Source: Halobacteriales archaeon QS_6_64_34
GTDB taxonomy: Archaea; Halobacteriota; Halobacteria; Halobacteriales; Haloarculaceae
Reading direction: 5' to 3'
Assembly (NCBI GenBank): GCA_003020925.1
Contig: PXRT01000006.1
Coordinates: 1 to 64,000, forward strand
DNA length: 64,000 nt
Shown here one piece after another: positions 5,664 to 38,716 of this stretch (its first letter is position 1; the number at the start of each line of letters is the position of its first letter). The position numbers and the translations under genes are program-made. The notes under the pieces were generated by a model. That model did no database searches and was not told where the DNA came from. It worked only from the letters and a program-made list of their open reading frames with translations.

Positions 5664-6455
5664 ATGGCAGACTCGGGCCGAGCAACGGTGGGGGAGTATA
5701 TGACGCGGGACGTCGCGACCGTCGAACTGGACGACACCGTCACGGACGTGGCAAACCGCATCGCGGAGAGCGACGACTTCAGTGGCTTCCCCGTCACCGA
5801 CGGACGACGCGTCGAGGGCTTCGTCAGCGCCCGCGACCTGCTGCTTGCGGCGGACCACGAACCTATGTTCAAGGTGATGACCGAGGATATCATCGTTGCC
5901 ACGCCCGAGATGGCGGTTCAGGACGCCGCTCGGGTCATCCTCCGGTCGGGCATCCAGAAGCTCCCGGTCGTCGACGAGGCGGGGAACCTCGTGGGCATCA
6001 TCTCCAATACCGACGTCATCCGCTCTCAGATCGAGCGAGCGACACCCGACAAGGTCGACAAGCTCGCCCGGACGCTTGCGAACATCCACGAGGTAACCCC
6101 CCACGACGAGCGTCGGACGGTCGACCTCGCCGCGCTCACGCCGACCCAGCCGACGGTGTACGCCGACGAGCTGGAGGGCCGGGTGTATGAACTCGAGCGG
6201 GGCCTGGCCGAGCCCCTCGTGGTCATCGACAACGACGGCCACCGCTACCTGGCCGACGGCCACCACCGCGTGAAGGCCGCCGACCGACTCGACATCGAAT
6301 CGATGGAGGCAAACGTCATCGTGCTGGGCGAGAGCGTCGAACTCGGGATGGCCGAGACAGCCGCCAAGGCCGGCCTCGAAGACATCGACGACATCGAGGT
6401 CGTCGACTACGCCCGCCATCCGCTCGTCCAACAGACCGAGCGGTTACAGGAGTAA
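5664..6455 (+). CDS. CBS-domain protein with ParB-like C-terminal domain
   Basis: 263 residues from ATG 5664; a GTG at 5661 directly before it is an equally possible start. Two CBS motifs occupy residues ~5-125 (VGEYMTRDVATVELDDTV; DIIVATPEMAVQDAARVI), the usual adenosyl-ligand sensing pair. The C-terminal half (VDLAALTPTQPTVY, EPLVVIDNDGHRYLADGHHR) resembles the ParB/Srx-like nuclease fold with its DGHHR signature. The pairing suggests a ligand-regulated nucleic-acid or phosphoryl-transfer function; the exact role is unknown. It follows the DHH gene in the same direction. Confidence 0.8.
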   Translation: MADSGRATVGEYMTRDVATVELDDTVTDVANRIAESDDFSGFPVTDGRRVEGFVSARDLLLAADHEPMFKVMTEDIIVATPEMAVQDAARVILRSGIQKLPVVDEAGNLVGIISNTDVIRSQIERATPDKVDKLARTLANIHEVTPHDERRTVDLAALTPTQPTVYADELEGRVYELERGLAEPLVVIDNDGHRYLADGHHRVKAADRLDIESMEANVIVLGESVELGMAETAAKAGLEDIDDIEVVDYARHPLVQQTERLQE

Positions 6456-6575
6456 ATCGTTACAACCGACCGTATGAGCGGTAGCGAAGACTCCAATACC
6501 GACGCGGGGAGAGCGGGCTGCTCGGCGCCTCGAACGGGGAGAACCTTCTTGCGAACAGCTACCGTACCACATGGT

Positions 6576-31111: not shown

Positions 31112-32109
31112 TCGTCACTCGGGGCGGCGACCTCGTCGGCCTCGCCGCTCGCGTCGACCGCTGTGGCGAGGTCGTACTCGTTGCCCGTCAGCAAAAAGAG
31201 GAGGTCCTCGACGAGGACGGTTATCTCTGGCAGCTCCCGGACGAGGAAATACGTAATCGCCACGAGGGCGACCACCGACCCCGTCTGTGCGAGGATGCGG
31301 TCGGCCACGTAGTACGACACCAGCTGTGGGTCCTCGATGCTGAACAGCGCCATGACGAGACCGGGGAATAGCTGCATCCGCTGTTCCCCAAAGGAGACGG
31401 CGATGAAGACGTTTCGGACCAGGTTCAACACGTAGATGACCGACACCGTAATCGCCAGCGCGCGGAGCTTGCGGCGCCACGGCGCCGACACGGCCAGGAT
31501 ACCGCCGACGAAGATGGCGATGCTCCCGATACCGGTACAGGCCAGTATAATCGTATAGGTTATCGGCCGGGAGTTGCCCTCGAACCAGAACGTGCTCTCG
31601 TAGGGGTAGGGTTTGTCCGCTATCGGGACGCCGTTGTATTCGAGTCCACCGACCAGCAGCGGGTCAACGCCCAGCAGCGACAGCAGGAACGCCGTCTGGT
31701 CGGCGACGGACTCGACGATGGCCTCTCGCATCGGGCCGATAGTGAGGAAGGGGACGTAGACCAGTCCCATCAGCCCCACCGCCCGCGTGAGGACGAACAG
31801 CGAGTCCCGCCCCCGCAAGAGGTGGTACCCCGCCCAGAGCGACAGCGGTACCGCCGCGAAACTGCCCACGCCCTCGATGAGGCTCTTCTGTGTCAGCGTG
31901 AAATGCGGAACGAGCACCAGCCAGAACGCCCCGAAGGCGACCCAGCCAGCGACCGCGACCCGTCGGGCCCACGCCACGTCGTATCGATGGACGAGCGCAC
32001 TGCCCAGAAACGCCGCGAGCACCACCCACATCAGCGGTTCCGACCACACGAGCGGGTCGACCGAAACCCCGCCAAACGTGATAGTCGACTGGAGGACAGG
32101 GGTACTCAT
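31108..32109 (-). CDS. artA: Archaeosortase A
   Basis: 333 residues, polytopic membrane transpeptidase-like enzyme that removes the PGF-CTERM tail of surface proteins, coupling them to lipid. The catalytic Cys191 (ILACTGIGSIAIF), Arg232 (LNLVRNVFIAVSF) and Arg271 (VADRILAQT) are present and spaced exactly like C173, R214 and R253 of the Haloferax volcanii enzyme. Transcribed away from the S-layer gene with 366 bases between, which hold a mobile element. A clear substrate, the S-layer glycoprotein, is the next gene. Confidence 0.94.
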   Translation of the reverse strand: MSTPVLQSTITFGGVSVDPLVWSEPLMWVVLAAFLGSALVHRYDVAWARRVAVAGWVAFGAFWLVLVPHFTLTQKSLIEGVGSFAAVPLSLWAGYHLLRGRDSLFVLTRAVGLMGLVYVPFLTIGPMREAIVESVADQTAFLLSLLGVDPLLVGGLEYNGVPIADKPYPYESTFWFEGNSRPITYTIILACTGIGSIAIFVGGILAVSAPWRRKLRALAITVSVIYVLNLVRNVFIAVSFGEQRMQLFPGLVMALFSIEDPQLVSYYVADRILAQTGSVVALVAITYFLVRELPEITVLVEDLLFLLTGNEYDLATAVDASGEADEVAAPSDD

Positions 32110-32157
32110 TGCTCTATCTTTGCCAATCCGGCCTAAATGCTTTGTCGTTGTGCGGGC

Positions 32158-32389
32158 GGTGGTGTTTAGTTAGGCGATTCAGACTGTCACCAGCCAGAAA
32201 GCCCCGGCTGGCTTCGGTCGGGGGGCTTGCTGCGCTCCTCGGCCTTCGGCCTGTGGTGCTTACGTCGCCCGCCTTCCCGAAGCCAGCCGCCCCTTTCAGT
32301 CCCACCCGCACTGATTGACCAACCGGCATGGGCGGGACTGAAAGGGGCCGACCCTCTCTTCCGCGTTTTCTACCAAACTAAACACTACC
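32158..32389. mobile_element. MITE-like element, copy A, with 8-bp target duplication
   Basis: Terminal inverted repeats GGTGGTGTTTAGTT (32158-32171) and AACTAAACACTACC (32376-32389), 13 of 14 matching. The flanks are GTGCGGGC at 32150-32157 and GTGCGGGC at 32390-32397, an exact 8-bp duplication. Inside, one complete minus-strand module (32191-32307) has arms GGCTGGCTTCGG (32206-32217) and CCGAAGCCAGCC (32277-32288). The second, plus-strand module is cut: GGGCGGGACTGAAAGGGGC is present, then sequence jumps to the right end. No transposase; presumably moved in trans. Confidence 0.85.
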
Positions 32390-32475
32390 GTGCGGGCTGT
32401 ACATCGGACACACAGCGCCGCCGCTACCGGACGAGCACGCAAAAAAGTTCGAAAGTCAAGGACGGGGCGGTCCCG

Positions 32476-37502: not shown

Positions 37503-37555
37503 TGTGTGTACGTCCGCCCCGCACGCCGAATAAGGCTTTCTTCCCTCGCCGACCC

Positions 37556-37774
37556 GGTGGTGTTTAGTTAGGCGATTTAAACTGTCAACAGCCAGAAAGC
37601 CCCGGCTGGCTTCGGTCGGGGGGCTCGCTGTGCTCCTCGGCCTTCGGCCTGCGGTGCTTACGTCGCCCGCCTTCCCGAAGCCAGCCGCCCCTTTCAGTCC
37701 CACCCGCACTGATTAAGTCGAGCGGTCGGGGGCTTTCTGGCTCTCTTCCGCGTTTTCTACTAAACTAAACACGA
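37556..37774. mobile_element. MITE-like element, copy B, with 11-bp flanking duplication
   Basis: Left terminal repeat GGTGGTGTTTAGTT (37556-37569) and right repeat AACTAAACAC (37763-37772). The flanks carry CTCGCCGACCC at 37545-37555 and again at 37775-37785. The complete minus-strand module is nearly identical to copy A, including arms GGCTGGCTTCGG (37604-37615) and CCGAAGCCAGCC (37675-37686). Its plus-strand module is deleted differently: the GAAAGGGG start is gone but GGGGGCTTTCTGGCT remains. No coding capacity of its own. Confidence 0.83.
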
Positions 37775-37865
37775 CTCGCCGACCCCGACCGTGGCCCGCG
37801 ATTACCATGGTTAATTCCCGGAGATTTCGATACACCTATACGACGCCCGCCACCAGCAGACGAGT

Positions 37866-38388: not shown

Positions 38389-38440
38389 ACGTCAGTGGAG
38401 GATAGGCGAGCACATAACTGTTATCTGTCCATCACTGGCA

Positions 38441-38716
38441 GTGTTTAGTTAAGCGACAGCGACGGCAACAGCCAGAAAGCCCCCGCGTTCTCAGCTCCCG
38501 CGACTCGCTGCGCTCCGGTGGGTGCTTGCGTCGCCGGGATTCGCTGAGAACGCGGCCCCTTTCAGCCCCACCCATGCTGGCTGGTCACCCGGCTACGGGT
38601 GGGGATGAAAGGGGCGGCCTGCTACACGAAGGCGGACGACGTAAGCACCGCAGGGAACGAAGTGACCGAGGAGCGCAGCGAGGCCCCCGAGTGTAGCAGG
38701 CCGGGGCTTTCTGGCT
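38441..38716. mobile_element. MITE-like element, copy C: both modules complete, right end missing
   Basis: Begins with GTGTTTAGTT (38441-38450) but has no matching right terminal repeat; sequence changes after CTTTCTGGCT at 38716. It has two complete modules back to back. Minus module arms: CCGCGTTCTCAGC (38483-38495) and GCTGAGAACGCGG (38543-38555). Plus module arms: GGCCTGCTACAC (38616-38627) and GTGTAGCAGGCC (38691-38702). The centre CCCCACCC ... GGGTGGGG is a further inverted repeat. The element ends 25 bases before the rpl11 TATA box. Confidence 0.8.

What the first reader, a model, noticed from the sequence alone, without database searches (positions are those of the whole stretch)
32150..32397. 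Copy A: inverted ends with a perfect 8-bp target duplication
GTGCGGGC stands immediately outside both ends of the GGTGGTGTTTAGTT/AACTAAACACTACC inverted repeat. This is direct evidence of transposition by a DDE-type enzyme acting in trans, since the element has no gene. Several families duplicate 8 bp, among them IS1595 (with the haloarchaeal ISH4 group) and some IS5 members; I cannot choose between them.
Basis: seen in the sequence. Interest (0 to 1): 0.7.

Follow-up and report, generated by a model that had tools for sequence, protein, structure and literature searches.

The report
IS6-driven mini-transposon with hairpin cargo
This is one of about fifty tiny gene-less jumping elements in a salt-loving archaeon (Haloarcula), moved by the enzyme of a known transposon family (IS6), and it carries a hairpin-forming DNA unit that is widespread in haloarchaea and that we could not find described.

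Summary
GTGCGGGC (32150-32157 and 32390-32397) directly flanks a 232-bp gene-less element (32158-32389) whose 14-bp ends match at 13 of 14 positions. It belongs to a family: 50 copies with paired ends and the same core were found in this Haloarcula draft genome. 33 of them have 7 or 8 matching bp in the 8-bp flanks, against 3 of 3,933 unrelated flank pairs, and agreement stops exactly at 8 bp. Three other Haloarcula species have the unoccupied site for copy A.

The transposase source is neither IS1595 nor shown to be IS5. It is an archaeal IS6-family element (ISH14-like, 696-697 bp) found intact in related Haloarcula genomes, with the same GGYRGTGTTTAGTT ends, the same left/right polarity and 8-bp duplications. 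So copy A is an IS6-type MITE, a known kind (ISfinder lists MITEHarch3).

The less expected part is the cargo: a ~115-nt hairpin module, normally an inverted pair, found in 84 of 117 sampled genomes of the order and also outside IS6 frames. Its stems differ between copies yet stay complementary within a copy, with no preference for G-U wobble, which points to a DNA hairpin rather than an RNA. No Rfam family or open-access paper describing it was found.

The parts
32150..32157 (.). Copy A target-site duplication, left (GTGCGGGC)
   Evidence: single-copy octamer position in empty sites of G017, G022, G023
32158..32191 (+). Copy A left end, 34 bp, starting with TIR GGTGGTGTTTAGTTAGGCG; matches the end upstream of the transposase gene in IS6 elements (GGYRGTGTTTAGTTAAGCG)
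32192..32307 (+). Hairpin module AGCCAGAAAGCCCC-stem-...-stem'-GCCCCTTTCAGTCCCACCC
   Evidence: covariance-model hit, 125.7 bits, E 3e-29
32330..32355 (-). Remnant of the inverted second module (GGGCGGGACTGAAAGGGGCCGACC...); the rest, including the GGGGCTTTCTGGCT arm present in most copies, is missing in copy A
   Evidence: weak model hit 32330-32375
32356..32389 (-). Copy A right end, 34 bp, TIR GGTAGTGTTTAGTTTGGTAG read inwards; matches the end downstream of the transposase gene in IS6 elements (GGTAGTGTTTAGTTTGGAG)
32390..32397 (.). Copy A target-site duplication, right (GTGCGGGC)
37547..37785 (+). Copy B: second IS6-type MITE with flanking direct repeat CGCCGACC(C), element about 37556-37776, module 37590-37705; unoccupied site in relatives (clearest in G022 and G017)
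38437..38716 (+). Copy C: left IS6-type end (GGCAGTGTTTAGTTAAGCG) plus a full inverted pair of modules (38470-38573 +, 38597-38716 -); right end missing
   Evidence: insertion absent in L386

Best explanation
[quoted passage not shown] A DDE transposase of an ISH14-like IS6-family element, supplied in trans, recognised the two polarised ends (34-bp arms, outer 14-19 bp shared with the IS) and inserted the element with an 8-bp staggered cut, giving GTGCGGGC on both sides. The site is a gap between two genes on the minus strand, 48 bp upstream of the start codon at 32109. By analogy with bacterial IS6 elements the route was probably replicative (cointegrate, then homologous recombination between copies); that step is inferred. 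Between the arms lies a passenger, an array of DNA hairpins built on a ~115-nt module usually present as an inverted pair, of which copy A keeps one complete module and part of the second. Shown: ends, duplication, family, empty sites, IS6 partners in the genus. Inferred: that IS6 transposase moved this copy, and the cointegrate route.
For: TIR and duplication present. 50 copies, 33 with >=7/8 duplication, sharp 8-bp limit. At least 14 IS6-family elements of 696-697 bp in the genus carry GGYRGTGTTTAGTT-type ends, 10 of them with exact 8-bp duplications and one more with a one-base shift. Their transposases score 184.5 and 182.2 bits against NCBIfam IS6 (cut-off 125) and pass Pfam DDE_Tnp_IS240. 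Polarity agrees: MITE left GTTAGGCG with IS 5' end GTTAAGCG; MITE right GTTTRGTAG with IS 3' end GTTTGGAGC. No IS1595 transposase in the genome. Empty sites for A and B in relatives. Copies match copy A at 94-99% in their best stretches while flanks differ by about 13-16% from the species with empty A sites, so amplification is recent in this lineage.
Against: No intact IS6 transposase was found in the window's own genome, only one interrupted IS6-like gene with different ends (GGGTCGCGTTAAGTT); but the assembly is only 80% complete and many contigs end inside MITE copies, so the source may be missing. Sequence shared between MITE and IS is confined to the outer ~19 bp. Transposition was not observed. 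8 of 50 paired-end copies have no recognisable duplication. Interior length is unreliable in this draft: many copies contain runs of N.
Confidence: 0.9

Rival explanations
1. The element is mobilised by an IS1595-family (ISH4 group) or IS5-family transposase.
For: PF12762 does ring in Haloferax volcanii (control), so the family exists in haloarchaea.
Against: PF12762 has no match in this genome. Elements with these exact ends encode IS6-family transposases.
Confidence: 0.04
2. The covarying interior module is a structured non-coding RNA, and the MITE is mainly a vehicle for an RNA gene or regulatory leader.
For: Strong covariation: 26 of 30 pairs with changes on both sides over 128 sequences, score 0.553 against 0.139 shuffled; conserved unpaired blocks.
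Against: G-T (G-U) cells are not preferred over A-C cells: 30 against 45 of 3,730 (6 against 14 of 1,076 in the independent alignment), with 3,530 Watson-Crick cells; selected RNA helices are expected to favour G-U over A-C. No Rfam match.
Confidence: 0.15
3. The hairpin module is a REP/BIME-like DNA repeat with its own (single-strand, HUH or hairpin-based) spread, which IS6 MITEs have captured as cargo.
For: Modules occur in inverted pairs and in frames without IS6 ends; Watson-Crick-only covariation suggests DNA hairpins; the genome has four Y1 (IS200-type) transposases.
Against: Far longer than REPs (20-40 bp, PMC3733652); no GTAG/CGTC tag; linkage of a Y1 gene to modules was not tested; many non-IS6 copies sit between CTAG-containing flanks rather than standing alone.
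Confidence: 0.35
4. Stem diversity arises by exchange of whole hairpins between copies (gene conversion or recombination), with no function of the hairpin at all.
For: At one orthologous site the window genome and G017 share flanks but carry different stems in both modules; there are tens of copies per genome to recombine.
Against: Exchange spreads but does not create the many distinct stems (95 distinct 5' arm sequences among 149 modules); conserved blocks outside the stems (GAAAGCCCC, CTTTCAGTCCC) suggest constraint.
Confidence: 0.4

Closest known systems
ISH14 / ISHarch12-type archaeal IS6-family insertion sequences (PMC6807381 Table 5; PMC7986276)
   Same: GG-starting ends, 8-bp duplication, 696-698 bp, 211-aa transposase in the named elements; the elements found here in related Haloarcula are 696-697 bp with GGYRGTGTTTAGTT ends.
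   Different: Copy A has no gene, is 232 bp, and shares only the outer ~19 bp with them. The named ISH14 sequence itself was not compared.
MITEHarch3 (IS6-family MITE listed in ISfinder, named in PMC6807381; PMC7986276 gives the two IS6 MITEs as 227 and 336 bp)
   Same: An archaeal IS6-type MITE without transposase, of similar size.
MITE, PATE and SMR families of Haloquadratum walsbyi (PMC3119063)
   Same: Gene-less, repetitive elements in a haloarchaeon; MITEs there too can lack a functional transposase in the same genome.
   Different: No member with these ends or this module is given in the passages read; SMRs there lack target duplications and PATEs lack terminal repeats.
REP/BIME repeats of bacteria (PMC3733652, PMC2817692)
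   Same: High-copy extragenic palindromes, often in opposite orientations.
   Different: The module is about 115 nt, lacks GTAG/CGTC tags, occurs in haloarchaea, and sits in IS6 and CTAG-type frames.

Membership tests
IS6-family MITE | Terminal inverted repeats like those of an IS6-family element, with matching left/right polarity | tested here: met
   Ends equal to those of IS6 elements L042, L050, L109, L113, L115 and others over the outer 14-19 bp
IS6-family MITE | 8-bp target-site duplication | tested here: met
   8/8 in copy A; 33 of 50 copies >=7/8; agreement stops at 8
IS6-family MITE | No transposase gene, small size, many copies | tested here: met
   Element ends enclose only 232 bp of hairpin sequence; copies 86-420 bp, 50 copies
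IS6-family MITE | Partner elements encode an IS6-family DDE transposase | tested here: met
   NCBIfam NF033587 184.5 and 182.2 bits, cut-off 125; PF13610 above cut-off
IS6-family MITE | Intact transposase source in the same genome | tested here: inconclusive
   Only one interrupted IS6-like gene with other ends found; genome 80% complete in 17 contigs
IS6-family MITE | Mobilisation by IS6 transposase in trans | not testable with these tools
   Needs a mobility assay
IS1595 family (ISH4 group) | IS1595 DDE transposase associated with these ends | tested here: not met
   PF12762 absent from the genome; elements with these ends encode IS6 transposases
IS5 family | IS5-type transposase associated with these ends | not tested
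   No direct search; displaced by the IS6 match
REP/BIME repeats (for the cargo module) | 20-40 bp palindrome with GTAG or CGTC tag | tested here: not met
   Module about 115 nt, consensus starts AGCCAGAAAGCCCC; definition from PMC3733652
REP/BIME repeats (for the cargo module) | Regular occurrence in opposite orientations | tested here: met
   Most module loci examined hold a + and a - module, usually about 15-30 nt apart
REP/BIME repeats (for the cargo module) | Linked RAYT (Y1) transposase | tested here: inconclusive
   Four Y1 transposases in the genome; linkage to modules not examined
Rfam-described structured RNA (for the cargo module) | Match to a curated family | tested here: not met
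   No gathering-level match in 11 module loci; only sub-threshold matches, mostly to microRNA models, in the window

The most novel reading that the evidence does not exclude
The cargo is an undescribed, order-wide family of haloarchaeal DNA hairpin modules (conserved AGCCAGAAAGCCCC and GCCCCTTTCAGTCCCACCC edges, freely changing but Watson-Crick-complementary stem, normally an inverted pair). It spreads in several unrelated transposon frames (IS6-type with 8-bp duplications, and a CTAG-flanked type), and its stems are replaced as whole hairpins at the DNA level.
Probability: 0.4. Interest if true: 0.75.

Novelty: new variant of a known kind. Interest (0 to 1): 0.52.

Why it matters
It shows which transposase type most likely makes these insertions (IS6, not IS1595), and describes an archaeal IS6-type MITE amplified to about fifty copies, with insertions in AT-richer sequence and less often inside open frames than control positions. 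More broadly, the same hairpin cargo occurs in most haloarchaeal genomes sampled, with clear covariation but no wobble preference. This raises a testable question: how does a DNA hairpin keep its complementarity while its sequence changes, and why do different transposon frames carry it?

Tried and rejected
IS1595 as source: no PF12762 in the genome. Structured RNA for the interior: Rfam negative and no G-U preference. Known repeat: literature searches by sequence and by term found no description of the module (open-access library only). Phage carriage: no match to copy A in the phage collection. Plasmid collection: only the interior matched, at 72-78% in Halobacteria. Precise duplication of the CTAG-type frames: not resolved. 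An alignment of the copy A site with relatives by MAFFT was uninformative because it forced the empty sites against the element; BLAST of joined flanks was used instead. The 2007 review of archaeal insertion sequences could not be read.

Full report
CHECK. The window lies in a draft genome (2.20 Mb, 17 contigs, 80% complete). Close relatives by one protein (a GTPase next to copy B) are named Haloarcula, so the host is a Haloarcula in the broad sense.

FAMILY. A DNA search gave 95 matching pieces in the genome, and the end pattern had 58 + 61 matches against 0 in the reversed control. After fetching the places, 50 copies with paired ends and the shared core were compared: 33 have at least 7 of 8 and 24 have 8 of 8 bases equal in the flanks, against 3 of 3,933 for flank pairs drawn from different copies. 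Position by position, agreement is 34-41 of 51 inside the eight bases and mostly 8-12 of 51 outside (22 at most). This is an 8-bp target duplication by any standard.

EMPTY SITES. The joined flanks of copy A align without interruption to three other genomes of the genus (G017, G022, G023; 84-87% identity over the joint), and those of copy B to several, at up to 91%. A conserved block, CTTTGCCAATCCGGCCTAAATGCTTTGTCGTT, ends directly before the copy A duplication; it lies upstream of the gene that starts at 32109 and may hold its promoter (inference). Copy A sits 48 bp and copy B about 53 bp upstream of minus-strand genes. Across copies the flanks are AT-richer (0.46-0.47 at 10-30 bp against 0.354 overall) and less often inside a long open frame than control positions, so insertion is biased to intergenic sequence.

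SOURCE. PF12762 (IS1595) is absent from the genome. PF13610 finds one interrupted IS6-like gene here with different ends but matches in 25 of 32 genomes of the genus. Among the fetched loci, 14 elements of 696-697 bp have GGYRGTGTTTAGTT-type ends, and most have perfect 8-bp duplications, e.g. L042 CCGTTTCC and L050 GTCTCTGC. Two of their proteins were tested: both are IS6-family transposases by NCBIfam (184.5 and 182.2 bits, cut-off 125) and pass the Pfam DDE_Tnp_IS240 cut-off. Size, transposase length, GG ends and 8-bp duplication agree with ISH14 and ISHarch12 in the published table (PMC6807381). The MITE ends also keep polarity: left GTTAGGCG with the end upstream of the transposase gene (GTTAAGCG), right GTTTRGTAG with the end downstream (GTTTGGAGC). 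IS6 elements form cointegrates that are resolved by homologous recombination, leaving an insertion flanked by new 8-bp repeats (PMC7986276); this route is inferred for the MITE.

CARGO. In nearly all copies AGCCAGAAAGCCCC stands exactly 34 bp from the left end and its inverse exactly 34 bp from the right end, while the interior differs between copies by deletions and added hairpins. Runs of N and contigs that end inside copies mean that interior lengths in this draft, copy A's included, are not reliable. The repeating unit is a ~115-nt module. In 149 distinct modules there are 95 different 5' arm sequences; the arms pair 10/10 within a copy in 100 cases, but in only 14 of 3,306 between copies with different arms. 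An alignment of 36 modules gives 30 pairs, 20 with changes on both sides. A model built from it finds modules in 84 of 117 genomes of the order, in 36 of 48 genera, with counts limited by the number of scored candidates (31) in the richest genomes, and four modules in this window. On 128 distinct matches the covariation score is 0.553 against 0.139 in shuffles (that alignment was fitted to the model). G-T cells (30) are not commoner than A-C cells (45) among 3,730, with 3,530 Watson-Crick; the independently made alignment agrees (6 against 14 of 1,076). An RNA helix would be expected to tolerate G-U far better than A-C, so DNA-level pairing or copying is the better reading (inference).

FRAMES. 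In relatives the same inverted pair lies in IS6-type frames with 8-bp duplications (G017 GTCTTGTT, G018 GTCGGGTC, G105 ATCGAGGA), and also in frames whose flanks contain CTAG on one or both sides. At one CTAG-type site shared by the window genome and G017 the outer flanks agree but both stems differ, as expected if whole hairpins are exchanged. Other genera show modules preceded by 44-54-bp tandem repeats of the 5' edge.

VERDICT. Copy A is a new member of a known kind, the archaeal IS6-type MITE, with an unusual and widespread hairpin cargo that makes it a variant worth following. The cargo's function is not known; the most likely reading is a DNA hairpin that travels as passenger in several transposon frames. 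Limits: a draft genome, open-access literature only, ISfinder not available, and no experiment.

Noticed in passing
window 38437-38716: A third element with an IS6-type left end and a full inverted pair of hairpin modules but no right end, about 60 bp upstream of the ribosomal protein L11 gene; absent at that place in L386.
   Followed up: partly
L265, L266, L269, L270 and other loci of other genera: Tandem repeats of 44-54 bp made of the module's 5' edge directly upstream of a module (seven units in L265).
   Followed up: partly
L096, L066, L089, L278, L283: Pairs of short perfect hairpins (for example CGGGAGAGC...GCTCTCCCG followed by GTCGGCGC...GCGCCGAC) inserted at particular places inside modules in some copies; they look like a tiny mobile double-hairpin unit.
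   Followed up: no
L319 about 855-1290 and 6170-6500; L343; L284: Modules framed by sequences that begin or end with CTAG (CTAGGAAC / CTAGCA ends), a second non-IS6 frame whose transposase was not identified.
   Followed up: partly
G000 contig ends (C1, C3, C4, C5, C7, C10, C15): Many contigs of the draft genome end inside a MITE copy, and many copies hold runs of N, so the repeat is probably what breaks the assembly.
   Followed up: partly
L031 (G000:C5:30584-30976): Interrupted IS6-like transposase gene with ends GGGTCGCGTTAAGTTA, a different IS6 subgroup from the one that matches the MITE.
   Followed up: partly
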